Translations under genes and position numbers: made by a program
Shown here: positions 7,896 through 14,990 of the stretch, in pieces
Position numbering within the stretch: position 1 is the stretch's first letter
How the letters are laid out: each line of letters begins with the position of its first letter
From: a virus
Reading direction: 5' to 3' (one strand)
Length of the DNA: 61,632 nt
IMG/VR virus record: IMGVR_UViG_3300035034_000406
Span: 1 to 61,632 of that record
Notes under the pieces: generated by a model
The model's input: the letters and a program-made list of their open reading frames with translations, nothing else
The model's database searches: none
Told to the model about the DNA's origin: nothing

Positions 7896-9035
7896 ATGTC
7901 AAGCACACTAGCGAAGGCCCGTGCGGCCATCAAAAAGAACAAGAAGATTGATCTCGATAATAGAGTTCAACTCGATCCCAATAACGCAGAAGCCGTGGAG
8001 GCTATCTCTACGGGCTCACTGGTACTCGACTTCCTGATCGGAGGCAACAAGCTCCCTAACGGAAAGCGTCAGTGTCCCGGTATCCCTCGGAGCAGAATCA
8101 CTGAGCTGTACGGCCCGGAAGGTTCGGGTAAGACGACTCTGGCACTGGAAACAGCAGCCAAGGTTCAGTCTCAGGGTGGTTCAGTTTGCTTTCTCGATTA
8201 TGAGAACGCTATTGCCCCTGCATACGCTCAGAGTCTGGGTGTAGATTTCAGTGAGGATAAGTGGGACCTCTTCACGCCTATCACGTGGGAAGAGGGTGCA
8301 GAGATCATCAAGATCATGACTAATGCGGGTGTAGACCTGATCATTGTGGATTCGGTATCCGCTATGGTACCTCAGGCGACCTTTGAAAAGGACCCGTCAG
8401 AGACCGGCCAGATTGGTCTACTTGCCCGCCTCCAGTCGCACTTCCTGCCTAACCTTGTGAATGACCTTCGCAAGTCTGGCACCTCCCTGATGTACCTCAA
8501 CCAGCTTCGTAGCCGGATCAAAACGAGCCGCTACGATACAGGGCCGGACGAGGGTACCAGTGGTGGTCGTGCTCTCAAGTATTACGCCTCGCTACGCCTC
8601 AAGGTAAAGCGTGTGCGTACTGAGTACGACAACATCGAAAACGATCTTACAGGTGATAGCGAGAAGCAGCCTATCTGTAACATCGTGCGAGCACAGTGCA
8701 CCAAGAACAAGGTCAGTCCTCACCAAGGTCACTCGACGGATTTCGTGATCCGATATGGTGAAGGTATTGACAACGTGCGCTCGATTGCGGACATTGCGGA
8801 GAACCGCAAGTTGATCCGTCGAGCCGGAGCTTGGTACAAGCTCGTTGATCAGCATGGTGAAGAGCAGAGCCTCCAAGGTAAGGAGAACCTCCGCAACTAC
8901 CTACTGGACAACGAGGACGTCTTCATGCACCTCGTCAACGAGATCTCTTCCTTCTCTTCTGGAATGCGAGGCGGTCCGGCAGGTAGTGGTGGATCTGAGG
9001 ATGACGATGACGACTCCTCTGAGGAAGAGGAATAA
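7896..9035 (+). CDS. recA: RecA-type recombinase
   Basis: Strand-exchange ATPase, 379 residues. Walker A GPEGSGKT (about 73-80), Walker B LIIVDSVSAMVP (about 148-159), an L1/L2 region including GLLARLQSHFLPNL and YLNQLRSRI, and GGRALKYYASLRL all match bacterial RecA rather than T4 UvsX. It has an acidic C-terminal tail (SEDDDDDSSEEEE), which in RecA tunes DNA access. AAGGTG precedes the ATG. A hairpin follows the stop. Confidence 0.95.
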   Translation: MSSTLAKARAAIKKNKKIDLDNRVQLDPNNAEAVEAISTGSLVLDFLIGGNKLPNGKRQCPGIPRSRITELYGPEGSGKTTLALETAAKVQSQGGSVCFLDYENAIAPAYAQSLGVDFSEDKWDLFTPITWEEGAEIIKIMTNAGVDLIIVDSVSAMVPQATFEKDPSETGQIGLLARLQSHFLPNLVNDLRKSGTSLMYLNQLRSRIKTSRYDTGPDEGTSGGRALKYYASLRLKVKRVRTEYDNIENDLTGDSEKQPICNIVRAQCTKNKVSPHQGHSTDFVIRYGEGIDNVRSIADIAENRKLIRRAGAWYKLVDQHGEEQSLQGKENLRNYLLDNEDVFMHLVNEISSFSSGMRGGPAGSGGSEDDDDDSSEEEE

Positions 9036-9070: not shown

Positions 9071-9096
9071 TTCCACTATGACGATGTGGTGTGTGT

Positions 9097-10260
9097 ATGA
9101 AGGTACGTATCAAAAACTTCCAGTCCGTAGAGGACGCAGAGCTGGAGATCGAAGGCTTCACTGTGTTGGTTGGAAAGTCCAACATCGGGAAGTCTGCGAT
9201 CATCCGGGCAATCCAAGGGGCTGTAACAAACAGGGAAGGCGAAGACTTCGTTACACACGGAGCCGACTTCTCTGAGGTCCAGATTGACTGCCCGGAGATT
9301 CAGCTAGAATGGAAGAAAGGTAGCGGGTACAACGACTATGTGATCAACGGCGATAAGCTGGAGAGCGTAGGTCGTGGTGCCCCTCCCCACATTGAAGAAG
9401 CTGGATTCGGAGAGATGAAGGTTGGTCGTGACTCGATCAATGTCCAGATCTCCGACCAGTTTCACCCCCTGTTCCTTTTGAATGAAACGGGCTCACTTGC
9501 GGCAGAGGCGATCTCTGACGTAGGCCGCCTTAATGAAGTTCAAGAGGCACTCCGTGACGCAGAGAGCGATAGGAGAGGGGTACGCAGCACGCTCAAGGTG
9601 CGAGAGAAAGACCTTGTGGACGTGCGTGACCAACTCGACGAGTATGACCACTACGATGACGATATGGCACAGGTAGATGAAGTTAGAGCCTATCACCGGG
9701 ACATTACTGATCTCAATAAGGAGCTGGATTATCTCCAAGAGGTCGACCGTAAGAAGTCCACGCACGAGGACCAGATTCAGACTCTTGGCCCCGTAGCAAA
9801 GCTGGACGTCCCTGAGTGGGATGGTGATGCTGATCTCAAAGAGGTCGAGTCACTGGAACGCTTAGAGCGCCAGTTTGAGCGTGGGAAAGCCGGTCTACAG
9901 AAATATGCCGGTGTCGAGAAGGTTGATATTCCTGAATGGGACGGAGACGCCCTTGTGGGGGAGATAGAAACCCTCTCTAGGTTCTCTCAGAGAGCAGAGA
10001 AGCTGCTTCGTACACTGCACGAGTGCAAGGGCTTAGATGACCTTACTCTGCCTGACCTTGAGGATCTCAAAGCCTCACAGGAGGAAGTAGAGTACCTCGC
10101 AGACCTAGACGTTCGGTTCAAGGCCGCATACGGAGAGATCCCTACCTTGAAGCAAGAAGTCAAGACGCTGGGTGTGGCTATCGAAGAGAAGAAGGAAGAG
10201 CTGCACGACGTACTTCATGAGGCCGGTCAGTGTCCGACCTGCGAGCGAGGTGTAGAATGA
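9097..10260 (+). CDS. N-terminal half of an SbcC/Rad50-type ATPase, ending in a zinc-hook CxxC
   Basis: Repair/recombination ABC ATPase, 387 residues from the ATG at 9097. The family-typical start MKVRIKNFQSVEDAEL is followed by Walker A GKSNIGKSA (about 25-33) and a Q-loop QISDQFHPLFLL (about 115-126). Then come about 230 residues of coiled coil. The protein stops right after GQCPTCERGVE, a CxxC zinc-hook. The signature, Walker B and switch His are absent here and are found in the gene at 13935. A GTG at 9091 is an alternative start. The stop overlaps the SbcD start (ATGA). Two chains could rebuild one SMC-like ATPase; see findings. Confidence 0.85.
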   Translation: MKVRIKNFQSVEDAELEIEGFTVLVGKSNIGKSAIIRAIQGAVTNREGEDFVTHGADFSEVQIDCPEIQLEWKKGSGYNDYVINGDKLESVGRGAPPHIEEAGFGEMKVGRDSINVQISDQFHPLFLLNETGSLAAEAISDVGRLNEVQEALRDAESDRRGVRSTLKVREKDLVDVRDQLDEYDHYDDDMAQVDEVRAYHRDITDLNKELDYLQEVDRKKSTHEDQIQTLGPVAKLDVPEWDGDADLKEVESLERLERQFERGKAGLQKYAGVEKVDIPEWDGDALVGEIETLSRFSQRAEKLLRTLHECKGLDDLTLPDLEDLKASQEEVEYLADLDVRFKAAYGEIPTLKQEVKTLGVAIEEKKEELHDVLHEAGQCPTCERGVE

Positions 10261-11225
10261 TCAGTTTCCTCGTACGCACCGACGTTCACATTAATGACAG
10301 GCCGCCAGAGTCTCGCTGTGATGATTATCTGGAGACGGTACTCGGTAAGCTCAAACAGATCGGGGATATAGCCCGTGAGCGAGAGGTTGATGCCGTGTTG
10401 GATAACGGCGACTTCTTCCACAACAAAGCGGCCTCCCGTAACAGTCACCTCCTAGTCCGCAAGGTGGCAGATCTGCACAGGGCGTATTATCCATGCCCCG
10501 TCTATGAGAACCCCGGCAACCACGATTTCCCGTATGCCAATGTGGACTACGTAGAGAAGCAGCCTCTTGGGGTCCTGTTCTCGACGGGTATCTTTGAGCG
10601 CATGACGGATCACACCTTCGAGGATGGTGATCTGAAAGTGCGTGTCGTGGGTTTTCCTTACAAGGTCGAGTTCGATGCCTTCGAGTTCGATATTGAGCGG
10701 GGAGACGAGGACGTACTGATTGTGGCCGCCCATACGTATGCGAGCCCCACGGGTACAGAGAGTTTTGGAAAAGAGCAGTTCCTGTCTTATCAGGACCTTG
10801 CTGAGTGTACGCCAGACGTTTTTATTTTCGGCCACCTCCATGTGGATCAAGGCATCCAGATGGTCAAGGGTAAGCCGTTCTTTAACTTGGGCTCCCTCAC
10901 GAGAGGGTCGCTCACAAACGACAATCTGGAGAGGACCCCACGCATTGGGTATCTCCGCATTGAGAAGGTGGATGGAGAGGTCGAGATTACGACCGAACCG
11001 ATCCCCATTGAAGTAAAACCTTCCTCCGAAGTGTTTGACCTTGAGAAGCATGAGAGGATCAAGCAGGAGCGCAAGGATATAGATCAATTCATTGACACGC
11101 TATCAAGATCAGCGTCCGTGGACGAAGAAGATAATATCCGCAAGGCCATTGAGGGCTTGGAGGATTTCGACCACGATGTAAGGAACCGGGCGCTTCGGTA
11201 TCTAGAGGCAGCAGCCGCAGGATAA
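10257..11225 (+). CDS. SbcD/Mre11-like nuclease (calcineurin-like phosphoesterase)
   Basis: Two-metal DNA nuclease, partner of SbcC/Rad50, 322 residues. The metal-binding blocks are in order: D9-x-H11 (RTDVHIND), GDFFHN (about 50), GNHD (about 87-90), a His in AAHTYAS (about 158) and GHLHVD (about 192-197). The C-terminal 80 residues are charged and helical, suited to binding the ATPase. The ATG overlaps the preceding TGA, indicating translational coupling with the N-half ATPase. Confidence 0.92.
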   Translation: MISFLVRTDVHINDRPPESRCDDYLETVLGKLKQIGDIAREREVDAVLDNGDFFHNKAASRNSHLLVRKVADLHRAYYPCPVYENPGNHDFPYANVDYVEKQPLGVLFSTGIFERMTDHTFEDGDLKVRVVGFPYKVEFDAFEFDIERGDEDVLIVAAHTYASPTGTESFGKEQFLSYQDLAECTPDVFIFGHLHVDQGIQMVKGKPFFNLGSLTRGSLTNDNLERTPRIGYLRIEKVDGEVEITTEPIPIEVKPSSEVFDLEKHERIKQERKDIDQFIDTLSRSASVDEEDNIRKAIEGLEDFDHDVRNRALRYLEAAAAG

Positions 11226-11230
11226 CGCCT

Positions 11231-12151
11231 ATGTCGAAGCAATTTTGGCTTTCGTACTCGGGGTACAAAACGTACCGGGAGTGCCCGAAGAAATATCGCC
11301 TGACTCGTGTGGACAAAGAAGATCCACCGGAGCCGGACTCCAAGCACAATGCCGTGGTTGGGTCAGTGGTTCAGCGGGTCTATGAGGACTTCTACAACAA
11401 CGAGCTGTGGCGGTCCGGTAAGGACACCTCCAAGAAGCTGATGGAGCTGGTCCCGAAGTATTTCTACGAGTTCCTCGATGAAGAGTACGTTGACTTCGAC
11501 GATATTAAGTGCCGGTACAACCCACTTGAGTTGCTGGAGACGTGCAAAGAGATCGTTCCCAAGGTGCTTGAAGGCATCAAGCGGGAGAAGCTCATTGGCC
11601 CCTACGCCAAGAGTGAGATCGTCCTGAAAGTGCAGCTCCAGAGCAGCTATTTCCTGTATGGAATCGCGGACTTCATCATTCGTAAGAAGGATGGGACGGT
11701 GATGCTTCTGGACGGCAAATCGTCCAAGCACCGTGAGAAGTACGTTGACGAAGATCAGTTGTTGTTCTATGCTTTGGCCTTCCAGTTGAAGCATAACCGT
11801 CTACCCGACAAGCTGGGCTTCTACTACTACCGCTTTGCGGACGACCCGGAGCAGGCATTCGATTGGATCGAGCCTGACCCTAAGCGTATCGCTGCTCTCC
11901 GACAGGATCTAGTGGAGACTTTCACCAAGATCCAGAAGAAGCGTTTCGGTGCTACCCCCAAGTCTTCCCACTGTCAGTGGTGCCCTTGGGAGGTCATGTG
12001 CCCTGAGCGCCAGAAGGAAAAGGCCACGAGACGTGAAAAGCGGAGATGGAACCATGCGCAGAAGGGAGAAGAGACGCTCCCTTCACTCTCGCAAAGCAAC
12101 GAGGGATCTGCTATGATCGGTTTCGGTGGCGTGATGGAAGATGACGACTAA
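11231..12151 (+). CDS. Cas4/RecB-like PD-(D/E)XK nuclease with cysteine cluster
   Basis: Predicted DNA exonuclease, 306 residues. YSGYKTYRECPKKYRL (about 9-24) supplies the first cysteine. The core has LLDGKSSK (about 158-166), the D...(D/E)xK motif, then YVDEDQLLFYALAF. Three more cysteines lie in CQWCPWEVMCPE (about 248-259). One N-terminal and three C-terminal Cys is the iron-sulphur layout of Cas4, AddB and related exonucleases. No CRISPR array is in the window, so a recombination role with SbcCD is more likely. It starts 5 bases after sbcD. Confidence 0.85.
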   Translation: MSKQFWLSYSGYKTYRECPKKYRLTRVDKEDPPEPDSKHNAVVGSVVQRVYEDFYNNELWRSGKDTSKKLMELVPKYFYEFLDEEYVDFDDIKCRYNPLELLETCKEIVPKVLEGIKREKLIGPYAKSEIVLKVQLQSSYFLYGIADFIIRKKDGTVMLLDGKSSKHREKYVDEDQLLFYALAFQLKHNRLPDKLGFYYYRFADDPEQAFDWIEPDPKRIAALRQDLVETFTKIQKKRFGATPKSSHCQWCPWEVMCPERQKEKATRREKRRWNHAQKGEETLPSLSQSNEGSAMIGFGGVMEDDD

Positions 12152-12171
12152 TTAGACTACGGAGCACTATT

Positions 12172-12444
12172 ATGAGCGATATGACCGAATTGGAAGATCG
12201 GATCAAGAAGATCAAGACGAGGCGTGAAGAGCTTGTCAGCAAGAAGGCTGAGAAGGTGGCCCGCCTCAAAAACGCCCAAGAGGAACTCAAGGCCCTCAAA
12301 GAAGAAGCGTCTGAGAAGGGCTACGAGCTGAAAGAGATCCCGGAGCTTCGCAAAGAGAAGCAGAAGGAACTCAATGGCAAGGTAGCCCTGATCGAGTCGG
12401 CACTCGAAGAGGTCGAAGAGAAGCTCGCCCAATACGACGCTTAA
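12172..12444 (+). CDS. Small all-helical coiled-coil protein
   Basis: 90 residues, nearly all Lys/Glu/Leu in heptad-like order, with a break around EKGYELKEIPELR (about 49-61). CGGAG lies 9 bases before the ATG. Sitting between SbcCD pieces and the clamp, it might supply a detached piece of the SbcC coiled coil, or be an independent adaptor. No known family recognised. Confidence 0.7.
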   Translation: MSDMTELEDRIKKIKTRREELVSKKAEKVARLKNAQEELKALKEEASEKGYELKEIPELRKEKQKELNGKVALIESALEEVEEKLAQYDA

Positions 12445-12470
12445 AAAGCAACTGAGTTACAGGAGTTAAA

Positions 12471-13655
12471 ATGAGATTTAGCATTCGCAAAGACACCCTC
12501 CAGAAGGCCCTTGATGTTGCCAGCCTCGCTGTCACTAAAGATGCCGGTGTGATCACGTCTTCCGTTCTCTTTGAGATCGAGGAAGGGGACCTTACACTCT
12601 GGTCCACGGATCGCCGTGTTATGACGAAGGTCCCCACTACTATGGTGCCTGAGACCCTCCAAGGTGAGGGCAGCTTCACTGTAGAGGCGGGCCGACTTAC
12701 GCAGTGGGTTAAGTCAGTCTTCGAGGAAGAGATCGCCGTAGAGGTGGACACAGACGGTGTGGTAATGACCTGTGGAGACGCTACGGGTCACTTCGTATCA
12801 CTGGACGCTGACGCCTTCCCCGACTTCAAGAACCGTCTGGAAGGTAAGACCAAGCTCTTCGATTCGGACCCCACGACCTTCATCAACGCCTTGAAGTTTG
12901 CCAAGCCGTTCATCGGGGATGAAACCTCGAACAACGCCACGGCCAACAACTTTCAGGTAGCTGAGCTACGTGGCCGTGATATGATGGCTACGGACTCGTG
13001 CATCCTCTCCCTGTTCAAGGTGACGACGGACGAGAACAGTGATATTCTGGCCGACTACATCGAGAGCGGGCAGAAGTTCAAGGTCAGCAAAGACGAGATC
13101 AAGAAGGTCATTGACTTTCTCAACAAGACCTGCGACCTCCGGTTCTCGGTATCCAAAACCGACCTGTTTCTTATTGAGTCTGACGACGGCTCGATCTTCG
13201 GCTACTCGGAGCCCTTGTACGATCTTCCTGACATTCCCGGCATCCCTGTGGATCTCACAGAGCCTGAAATTTGGAAGCTCAACAAGAAGAAGCTCCAGAG
13301 CGCCGTCAAGGCTCTGACTGCTACGGCAGACCCGGACGATGTGGTCCTCGAAGTTGAAGTCTCAGGAGCCGAAGGTGTGCAGGGCGTCTTGAAACTTTCG
13401 ATGAAGGATGCTCTGGAGAAGCACGACTCGGTGTTTAAGATCCCGGTGGTACGTGAGAAGTCAAGCGGCGAATCTGTATCGTTCAAGGTCAACCATCAGT
13501 TCTTGACAGACCCTCTGGGCCTGTACGATGATGAAGATGTGTACATCGGCGTGAATGCCACTGCGGAAGCCAGCACCAAGTACGTCAAGCTCCACGAGGT
13601 TACGGAGCAGGGCAACGTGCGTGTGGCTCTGATCACACTGAGACTGGATCTATGA
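12471..13655 (+). CDS. Sliding clamp, DnaN-like
   Basis: Predicted DNA polymerase processivity ring, 394 residues, near the usual length of bacterial beta clamps (about 370). The start MRFSIRKDTLQKALDVAS matches the DnaN N-terminal helix. The middle SILSLF-like strand and the end VRVALITLRLDL (DnaN proteins end in PMRL) fit a three-domain beta clamp rather than T4 gp45 or PCNA (about 230-260). AGGAG precedes the ATG. Overall similarity is weak, so the call also rests on length and on the DnaX gene nearby. Confidence 0.8.
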   Translation: MRFSIRKDTLQKALDVASLAVTKDAGVITSSVLFEIEEGDLTLWSTDRRVMTKVPTTMVPETLQGEGSFTVEAGRLTQWVKSVFEEEIAVEVDTDGVVMTCGDATGHFVSLDADAFPDFKNRLEGKTKLFDSDPTTFINALKFAKPFIGDETSNNATANNFQVAELRGRDMMATDSCILSLFKVTTDENSDILADYIESGQKFKVSKDEIKKVIDFLNKTCDLRFSVSKTDLFLIESDDGSIFGYSEPLYDLPDIPGIPVDLTEPEIWKLNKKKLQSAVKALTATADPDDVVLEVEVSGAEGVQGVLKLSMKDALEKHDSVFKIPVVREKSSGESVSFKVNHQFLTDPLGLYDDEDVYIGVNATAEASTKYVKLHEVTEQGNVRVALITLRLDL

Positions 13656-13945
13656 GCGAATATCATCCCATCAAAGGTTTCGCTACCAGTAACGGGTACT
13701 ACAAACAGTATGCGGTTGCTGGCGAAACCTTAGAAGACGGAGACTACTTGCTTGTTGCGTTCCCCGATGGAACCGAAGAGGTGGTGAAGTGTGAGGTGAC
13801 AACTACACATGGAACTGGACGGGACGCGAGTAGTTGGGATAGGGTACAGCTTGTAGTAGAGTATCGTGGGGCGAAGGCCCTGATCCATGACCATTCGCAG
13901 ATCACAGCACAGTATCTAGGTCCAATGGTAAGTGATGACACCTGA
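13652..13945 (+). CDS. Small unknown protein
   Basis: 97 residues, beta-rich, no recognised domain. The ATG overlaps the clamp stop by 4 bases (ATGA), so it is probably translationally coupled to the clamp. The 3' end overlaps the next gene by about 11 bases. Confidence 0.75.
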   Translation: MSEYHPIKGFATSNGYYKQYAVAGETLEDGDYLLVAFPDGTEEVVKCEVTTTHGTGRDASSWDRVQLVVEYRGAKALIHDHSQITAQYLGPMVSDDT

Positions 13946-14564
13946 AATCCAAGCTAAATACGAGGCGGTCACGGAGCGTGCTAGAAAGGTGGAGACCACC
14001 TACTCCATGCTCCAAGACCGGGAGAAGGATCTTGTAGACGAGATCGACACCCTCAGGGACGAGGACGTGCTTCTCCAGAAGGTCGCTGAGCTGTTCAAGT
14101 TCCTTCTCAACAAATACGTCTACGAGTATGCTGAGTCTTTCAGCCAGATCGTGACTGAGGGTTTGCAGACCATCTATCACGACCAAGACGTGGCGTTCGA
14201 TATTGAGGTAGAGCAAAAAAGAGGGAAGGTCTACGCTAACTTCGTGACGGAGCAAAATGGCGTAAGGGCCAACCCCCTTGAATCCTTTGGCGGTGGCGTC
14301 TCGTCCGTCGTAAGCCTTCTTATGCGGGTGCTGGTCTTGCTCAAGGCTGACAAGGCTCGCTACTTGATCCTAGACGAGGCGCTCGCGGCTCTCAGCACTG
14401 AGTATATCGAGTCATGCGGTCAGTTCCTCCGTAAGCTATGCGAAGAGCTGGACGTCAATATCCTGCTGGTCACGCACAACCCGGACTTTCTCGACCAGTG
14501 TGATAATGCGTATATGGGCTCTACCAATGCTAAAGGGCGACTCCAACTAAGAGAGATCGGGTAA
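13935..14564 (+). CDS. C-terminal half of an SbcC/Rad50-type ATPase
   Basis: 209 residues from the ATG at 13935 (a GTG at 13932 is possible). About 90 residues of coiled coil lead into the ABC signature ESFGGGVSS (about 115-123), Walker B ARYLILDEALAALS (about 140-153, including the D-loop) and the switch motif LLVTHNPDF (about 175-183). These are exactly the elements missing from the gene at 9097. Walker A is absent, so this chain cannot be an ATPase alone. It is separated from the N-half by four full genes and a small ORF. Confidence 0.88.
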   Translation: MTPEIQAKYEAVTERARKVETTYSMLQDREKDLVDEIDTLRDEDVLLQKVAELFKFLLNKYVYEYAESFSQIVTEGLQTIYHDQDVAFDIEVEQKRGKVYANFVTEQNGVRANPLESFGGGVSSVVSLLMRVLVLLKADKARYLILDEALAALSTEYIESCGQFLRKLCEELDVNILLVTHNPDFLDQCDNAYMGSTNAKGRLQLREIG

Positions 14565-14570
14565 GGTCCT

Positions 14571-14990
14571 ATGAAAGACGAAGCAGAAATCAGGAAGAAG
14601 TACAAAGAGCTGCGGTACCGCCATTTGAAGCGGCACCTCAAGTCTCACCTGAGTAGTAGCCCTTCCAACTGCGTCCACAATTTGGAATGTGAGACGCCGG
14701 AAGGGCCTGCTCGTCTTTGCATGTTGGGTGCCGAAGATCCTGAGAACTGGCCGGGTAACATTTGTGACACTCTGGAGACGGCTCAAAAATGCCCCTTCTT
14801 CCAAAGCAAGCACGAGAAGGCAGAGCTAAAGGAAGAGTTTGAGCAGGATATGTCAGACGCTAAGACCGTCTATCACGACTACCGTGATCTGGCTATGTTG
14901 CTGTGGGCGTTAGAGGAAGAGCCTAAGGATCAAGAGGTACACTTGTCGTGGTGGAAACGCCTACGGCTTTGGTTTATGCGGAGCGATTGA
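14571..14990 (+). CDS. Cysteine-rich unknown protein
   Basis: 139 residues. Five cysteines (34, 40, 50, 65, 74) lie in one segment including NWPGNICDTLETAQKCPFF, suggesting a zinc or iron-sulphur site. Charged helices flank it, and the C-terminus is Trp/Arg-rich. It sits 6 bases after the ATPase half and 0 bases before the next gene. Function unknown; the context suggests DNA repair or replication. Confidence 0.75.
   Translation: MKDEAEIRKKYKELRYRHLKRHLKSHLSSSPSNCVHNLECETPEGPARLCMLGAEDPENWPGNICDTLETAQKCPFFQSKHEKAELKEEFEQDMSDAKTVYHDYRDLAMLLWALEEEPKDQEVHLSWWKRLRLWFMRSD

What the first reader, a model, noticed from the sequence alone, without database searches (positions are those of the whole stretch)
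9097..14564. SbcC/Rad50 split into two genes, with a zinc hook closing the first
The gene at 9097 has Walker A, the Q-loop and a coiled coil, and ends right after CPTCERGVE. The gene at 13935 has the ABC signature, Walker B, D-loop and switch His, but no Walker A. Together they contain one full set of ATPase motifs. The split falls at the zinc hook, and SbcD, a Cas4-like nuclease, a coiled-coil protein and the clamp lie between. The second coil is much shorter than the first, so the small coiled-coil gene at 12172 could be a third piece.
Basis: partly seen in the sequence, partly recalled or inferred. Interest (0 to 1): 0.78.

Follow-up and report, generated by a model that had tools for sequence, protein, structure and literature searches.

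The report
Phage DNA-repair ATPase built from pieces
In this phage and in nearly a hundred related phage, prophage and plasmid loci, the DNA-break repair ATPase SbcC/Rad50, which is one long protein wherever it has been described, is encoded as separate proteins cut exactly at its zinc hook; this natural split could make it testable whether the hook and the ATPase must be joined by one unbroken chain.

Summary
Confirmed, and larger than reported. The gene at 9097 (N) encodes the N-terminal half of a Rad50/SbcC: Walker A, Q-loop, a long helical arm and a CPTC that ends the protein. The gene at 13935 (C) encodes the other half: signature region, Walker B and H-loop, with no Walker A. Family profiles of each half find Pyrococcus Rad50 first in the PDB (N 5.7e-9, C 3.7e-11), and a profile of N's tail finds the Rad50 zinc-hook crystal structures first (2.9e-6). 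The split is ancient and stable. In 93 distinct loci no C is fused to an N, and 57 of 58 N proteins near a C end in CxxC 3-16 residues before the stop. Gene orders are N-S-C-SbcD (Firmicutes prophages) or RecA-N-SbcD-nuclease-S-clamp-C (uncultured and jumbo phages). Some megaplasmids fuse SbcD to N but keep C separate. Corrections: the signature serine is missing (FGGG), S plus C's arm are too short to be the whole return coil, and N's arm carries 40-residue repeats. No description was found in the open-access papers searched. Assembly itself is inferred, not shown.

The parts
9097..10260 (+). N: N-terminal half of SbcC/Rad50 (N-lobe, helical arm, terminal zinc hook); GTG start at 9091 also possible
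   Evidence: phrog_16465 1e-20; family profile hits Rad50 N-segments first, 5.7e-9; AF2 head pLDDT mostly above 90, Foldseek best Rad50 1f2u
9172..9195 (+). Walker A GKSNIGKS (residues 26-33)
   Evidence: invariant G26, G31, K32 in 44 relatives; two relatives carry an intein exactly here
9784..10152 (+). three 40-41 residue repeats (LxVPxxD + helix) in the arm of N
   Evidence: self-offset 40 score 56; 0 of 2000 shuffles reach it; AF2 helices broken at 231-243, 271-282, 316-320
10231..10242 (+). CPTC zinc hook, 5 residues from the C-terminus of N
   Evidence: C379 44/44, C382 43/44; tail profile hits Rad50 hook structures 1l8d 2.9e-6 and 6zff 6.5e-6 with CPxC aligned on CPxC
10257..11225 (+). 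D: SbcD/Mre11-like nuclease subunit; ATG overlaps the N stop (ATGA)
   Evidence: Metallophos 3.5e-13; DVH, GDFFH, GNHD and GHLH motifs intact in sequence; fused to N in megaplasmids
11231..12151 (+). PDDEXK (Cas4/RecB-like) nuclease, conserved neighbour between D and S
   Evidence: PDDEXK_1 1.3e-25; order D-P-S in most phage loci
12172..12444 (+). S: ~90-aa coiled-coil protein, probable third piece of the SbcC
   Evidence: homologous S in 83 of 93 loci; cross-group HMMs find S and no other of 12,364 ORFs at E<1
12471..13655 (+). sliding clamp (DNA pol III beta-like), conserved neighbour
   Evidence: DNA_pol3_beta 4.1e-9; phrog_947 7e-20
13935..14564 (+). C: C-terminal half of SbcC/Rad50 (short coil arm, signature region, Walker B, H-loop)
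   Evidence: phrog_15167 9e-22; profile hits Rad50 C-segments 3qkr_B 3.7e-11; AF2 pLDDT 94.5, Foldseek Rad50/SMC C-lobes 5e-8 to 8e-7
14286..14297 (+). signature region FGGG (Rad50 LSGGE; serine missing)
   Evidence: position is F/Y/R/N/I/V in 68 of 69 and never Ser
14373..14378 (+). Walker B D147-E148
   Evidence: invariant in 69 of 69
14475..14477 (+). switch (H-loop) His181
   Evidence: invariant in 69 of 69
7896..9035 (+). RecA-like recombinase, conserved neighbour upstream of N
   Evidence: order RecA-N-D-P-S-clamp-C in 23 distinct loci

Best explanation
This is a naturally split Mre11-Rad50 (SbcCD) complex. N supplies Walker A and the Q-loop, C supplies the signature region, Walker B and H-loop, and the two fold together into one ABC head that dimerises on ATP. 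The base of N's arm pairs with C's short helix. Beyond that the arm of N stands as a repeat-bearing helical rod ending in a CPxC hook at the protein's free end, which can still dimerise through zinc. S is a dedicated subunit that most likely pads or caps the arm where the return coil would lie. SbcD supplies the nuclease, and the complex trims phage DNA ends for the RecA encoded next to it. Shown by computation: homology of both heads, hook and SbcD, motif complementarity, strict co-inheritance, SbcD-N fusion. Inferred: physical assembly, zinc binding, the place of S, and function in end processing.
For: Complementary invariant motif sets. Each half's profile finds Rad50 first among solved structures, and the hook tail finds the Rad50 hook first. 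AF2/Foldseek of the halves match Rad50 lobes. 0 of 93 loci fused, 57 of 58 N with terminal CxxC. In large records where N was not near C it was found elsewhere in 11 of 22, 10 of those ending CxxC. N, S, C and D distance matrices agree (r 0.87-0.95, shuffled maxima 0.17-0.24). SbcD is fused to N in Geobacillus, Paenibacillus and Aneurinibacillus megaplasmids with S and C downstream. No intact SbcC in the split phage records. Hook peptides of Pfu Rad50 dimerise through zinc without the long coil (PMC5093744), so a terminal hook is workable. Pfu Rad50 heads engineered from two segments are in routine use (PMC8824468), and best PDB hits 1f2t, 1ii8 and 3qkr hold separate N and C chains.
Against: No interaction was measured or modelled: no multimer prediction was available. 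The signature serine is absent in all members, so the ATP-sandwich chemistry may differ. AF2 of N has pTM 0.37, so the arm's path is unknown. Arm lengths do not match: N arm about 245 residues against about 50 in C plus 90 in S. 11 of 22 records with C but no nearby N gave no N, though they may be fragments. Magritte, one related contig and L117 have a lost or altered CxxC.
Confidence: 0.88

Rival explanations
1. N and C are unrelated ABC-type proteins (for example N a RecF/OLD-like ATPase, C an SMC-like fragment) that happen to lie in one recombination operon and do not pair.
For: Single-sequence searches are weak and mixed: C of the window hits RecN best in NCBIfam (7.6e-6) and N hits generic AAA_15.
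Against: Neither protein has a complete ATPase motif set alone. Motifs are complementary and invariant, the two occur together in the complete phage records examined, distances agree, and family profiles favour Rad50.
Confidence: 0.05
2. The split is an artefact or a decaying gene (frameshift, insertion, assembly error), or the halves are rejoined by trans-splicing inteins.
For: Split genes often arise by error; inteins do occur in this family (L096, L104).
Against: Same split point in 93 distinct loci from Firmicutes prophages to uncultured jumbo phages; halves lie up to ~100 kb apart, in Tunturi_5 on opposite strands; N stops 3-16 residues after CxxC, leaving no room for an intein half.
Confidence: 0.01
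3. S is not part of the SbcC but a separate conserved protein of the recombination operon (for example a RecA or clamp accessory).
For: In jumbo phages S lies next to the clamp and PDDEXK genes, not N; lengths do not fit a simple descending coil.
Against: In Firmicutes prophages and megaplasmids, with neither clamp nor RecA between, S sits between N and C, in the place of the return coil in an intact gene, and lies right after N in Tunturi_5.
Confidence: 0.22
4. The complex is an ATP-binding but not ATP-hydrolysing, or non-dimerising, derivative, because the signature serine is gone; it would serve as a scaffold for SbcD.
For: FGGG/RGGG/YGGG instead of LSGGE in every scored member.
Against: Walker A lysine, Q-loop, Walker B Asp-Glu and switch His are all invariant, which suggests hydrolysis is selected.
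Confidence: 0.15

Closest known systems
Rad50/SbcC of the Mre11-Rad50 (SbcCD) complex, e.g. Pyrococcus furiosus Rad50 (1ii8, 3qkr, 1l8d)
   Same: N-lobe, C-lobe, CPxC hook, SbcD/Mre11 partner, recombination context
   Different: Two head halves on separate polypeptides; hook at a free C-terminus; no single return coil; extra S subunit; signature serine missing; repeats in the arm
T4 gp46/gp47 (phage Rad50/Mre11)
   Same: Phage-encoded SbcCD homolog next to recombination genes
   Different: gp46 is one chain with a short coil (own knowledge; Barfoot et al. cited in PMC5093744); here the gene is split
PHROG families 16465 (exonuclease), 15167 (ATPase), 18563 (unknown)
   Same: These are the N, C and Bacillus-type S proteins of this system
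   Different: The library holds them as three unconnected families; they were not joined as parts of one SbcC
Split DNA polymerase III and split RNA polymerase subunits of jumbo phages (PMC7824862)
   Same: Core DNA-handling enzymes naturally split into separate phage genes
   Different: That survey lists SbcC/SbcD as near-universal but the passages read do not mention a split SbcC

Membership tests
Rad50/SbcC | N-lobe with Walker A and Q-loop | tested here: met
   N: G26, G31, K32, Q121 44/44; Rad50 N-segment best hit
Rad50/SbcC | C-lobe with Walker B and switch His | tested here: met
   C: D147, E148, H181 69/69; Rad50 C-segment best hit
Rad50/SbcC | ABC signature LSGG(E/Q) with serine | tested here: not met
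   F/Y/R/N-GG-G/A; no serine at that position
Rad50/SbcC | CXXC zinc hook matching the Rad50 hook | tested here: met
   Tail profile hits 1l8d 2.9e-6, CPxC aligned; zinc binding itself not tested
Rad50/SbcC | Both head halves and the hook on one polypeptide, hook at the apex of an antiparallel coil | tested here: not met
   0 of 93 loci fused; hook at C-terminus of N
Rad50/SbcC | Partner nuclease SbcD/Mre11 | tested here: met
   D found in 85 of 93 stretches; D-N fusion in megaplasmids
Rad50/SbcC | ATP-dependent head dimerisation and DNA-end nuclease activity | not testable with these tools
   needs protein work
SMC | Globular hinge domain between the coils | tested here: not met
   no hinge-like domain in N, S or C; N ends at CxxC
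RecF/RecN | Single-chain head without zinc hook or SbcD partner | tested here: not met
   hook and SbcD present, motifs on two chains
Split intein (trans-splicing) gene | Intein halves at the split ends | tested here: not met
   N ends 3-16 residues after CxxC; C starts with a helix

The most novel reading that the evidence does not exclude
A four-protein Mre11-Rad50 machine (N, S, C, SbcD) in which no polypeptide links the ATPase C-lobe to the zinc hook: the arm is a self-folded repeat rod with the hook at a free end and a dedicated small subunit S. Coupling between ATP-driven head motion and hook dimerisation would then have to run through one strand only, and the heads could be assembled or taken apart by exchanging C.
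Probability: 0.45. Interest if true: 0.85.

Novelty: new variant of a known kind. Interest (0 to 1): 0.76.

Why it matters
Every Rad50/SbcC described in the papers read carries Walker A and Walker B at the two ends of one chain, joined through the hook. How the distant hook and the ATPase heads influence each other through that continuous coil is a long-standing question. A widespread natural version with the chain cut at the hook gives direct tests: N, S and C can be mixed, mutated and exchanged separately. It also assigns a likely function to protein families now annotated as 'hypothetical', 'exonuclease', 'ParA' or 'ATPase' in many phages, prophages and megaplasmids, and shows that 'SbcC missing' calls in such genomes can be wrong.

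Tried and rejected
Frameshift or assembly artefact: rejected, same split in 93 distinct loci. Trans-splicing intein: rejected, no room after CxxC. S as the simple missing descending coil: not accepted, lengths do not match. Single-sequence Pfam for C gave only weak SMC_N 0.005 and SbcC_Walker_B 0.07, so profiles were needed. PDB search with the S profile gave only coiled-coil or repeat noise. Tunturi_5 gp179 was first guessed as C; it is not, the real C is gp14 ~107 kb away. The viral-contig scan with Tunturi_5 C found nothing. Literature searches for split SbcC/Rad50 found nothing relevant.

Full report
WHAT IS IN THE WINDOW. The window is an IMG/VR virus record with a recombination and replication block: RecA-like 7896-9035, N 9097-10260, SbcD-like 10257-11225 (its ATG overlaps the stop of N), PDDEXK nuclease 11231-12151, small coiled coil S 12172-12444, sliding clamp 12471-13655, a 97-aa protein 13652-13945, and C 13935-14564.

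THE TWO HALVES ARE RAD50 HALVES. Single-sequence matches are weak, but PHROGs already holds both as families, phrog_16465 (N, 1e-20) and phrog_15167 (C, 9e-22), without connecting them. Profiles built from 44 N and 69 C relatives find Pyrococcus Rad50 first among all solved structures: C hits 3qkr_B at 3.7e-11 and 1ii8_B at 1.2e-10; N hits 3qkr_A at 5.7e-9. AlphaFold2 gives C at pLDDT 94.5 (one helix 3-80, then the lobe), with Foldseek matches to Rad50 and SMC C-lobes at 5e-8 to 8e-7. N's head has pLDDT mostly above 90 with Rad50 1f2u at 8e-5. The PDB entries hit best (1f2t/1f2u, 1ii8, 3qkr) hold the N and C segments of Rad50 as separate chains. An engineered head of two segments joined by a short linker is in routine use (PMC8824468). 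Nature has made the same cut.

THE SPLIT FALLS AT THE HOOK. Within the 44-member N alignment the first hook cysteine is invariant and the second is 43/44, as conserved as Walker A. A profile of the last 70 residues of 19 N proteins finds the crystal structures of the Rad50 zinc hook, 1l8d (2.9e-6) and 6zff (6.5e-6), as the top hits in the whole PDB, with CPxC on CPxC and only the ascending half aligned. The NCBIfam archaeal Rad50 model aligns window N 143-386 to model positions 207-445 of 878; the Pfu hook cysteines begin at 444 (PMC5093744). As a control, of 731 complete ORFs of 300-560 aa in the fetched loci, 65 end in CPxC and none is a non-N protein. Hook peptides dimerise through zinc on their own, most of the energy coming from the CXXC and its beta-hairpin (PMC5093744), so a hook at a free end is chemically workable; zinc binding here is inferred.

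THE SPLIT IS ANCIENT AND STABLE. Related loci came from viral contigs, genome contigs, phage records and plasmids. In 93 distinct C loci no C is fused to N; 57 of 58 N proteins in the same stretch end in CxxC 3-16 residues from the stop. In Firmicutes prophages the order is N-S-C-SbcD in all 24 distinct loci. In other phages the order RecA-N-SbcD-PDDEXK-S-clamp-C occurs in 23 distinct loci, with partial versions in most others. In some genomes the halves are far apart: Tunturi_5 N at 127-128 kb and C at 19 kb on the other strand; Magritte gp155 and gp2; jumbo contigs. In 22 records with C but no N nearby, N was found in 11, 10 of them with CxxC; the rest may be fragments. No intact SbcC was detected in the phage records checked. 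Pairwise distances of N, S, C and D agree closely (r 0.87-0.95, shuffled maxima 0.17-0.24), as expected of a module inherited together. On megaplasmids of Paenibacillus, Aneurinibacillus and Geobacillus the SbcD domain and N are one polypeptide of 801-937 aa with CPxC near its end, followed by S and a separate C. This fusion links SbcD and N physically while leaving the N/C split untouched.

THE THIRD PIECE. S is a real family, not just any coiled coil. A model built only from non-Firmicutes S proteins finds all 32 Firmicutes S at E<1e-3 and no other of 12,364 ORFs at E<1. The reverse model finds 36 S and no other ORF, although not the window's own S. S is present in 83 of 93 loci. In Firmicutes it sits between N and C, often overlapping C or within about 13 bases of it, where the return coil would be encoded in an intact gene. 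Magritte showed no detectable S. S is therefore a probable subunit. It is not simply the missing coil: N's arm is about 245 residues, C's arm about 50, and S 77-100. Part of N's arm in the window is three repeats of 40-41 residues (LxVPxxD plus a helix; 0 of 2000 shuffles reach the self-score), and AF2 breaks the arm into five helices, so the arm probably packs partly on itself. AF2 could not place it (pTM 0.37).

HOW IT MOST LIKELY WORKS. N and C fold together into one ABC head; two heads sandwich ATP; SbcD binds at the base; the arm of N ends in a zinc hook for dimerisation or tethering; S supports the arm; the complex processes phage DNA ends for the neighbouring RecA. Homology, complementarity and co-inheritance are shown. 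Assembly, zinc binding, ATP hydrolysis, the position of S and the function are inferred. The missing signature serine in all scored members is a caveat: the ATP-engaged state may use other contacts.

KNOWN OR NEW. Iyer et al. (PMC7824862) report split DNA polymerase III and split RNA polymerase subunits in jumbo phages and list SbcC/SbcD as near-universal; the passages read do not mention a split SbcC. Nine searches of the held open-access papers gave no description of a split Rad50/SbcC. Subscription journals and preprints were not searched, so prior mention cannot be excluded. I class it as a new variant of a known kind: it works like Rad50 and is homologous to it, but fails two defining features (single chain, canonical signature).

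Noticed in passing
L096:3301-5547 and L104:2560-4680: In two relatives an intein with a LAGLIDADG homing endonuclease is inserted in N exactly within Walker A (after GK); the SbcD-like ORF of L098 (3557-5884) also has a LAGLIDADG match.
   Followed up: partly
L146:2962-5487, L149:2450-5263, L145:3121-5526: SbcD/Mre11 and the Rad50 N-half fused in one protein of 801-937 aa on Firmicutes megaplasmids, annotated 'metallophosphoesterase' or 'AAA family ATPase', with S and C as separate genes downstream.
   Followed up: yes
L003:8001-9053, L130, L117:7029-8303: N proteins of Magritte and a related contig end without any CxxC, and L117 has only CPLT; these could be hookless versions.
   Followed up: no
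L011:15453-16655: In the close relative a DNA methyltransferase gene lies just after C, absent from the window; the small gene before C is also replaced (14526-14837 against window 13652-13945).
   Followed up: no
window 11231-12151: The PDDEXK (Cas4/RecB-like) nuclease sits between SbcD and S in most of the phage loci, so it may be a functional partner of the complex.
   Followed up: partly
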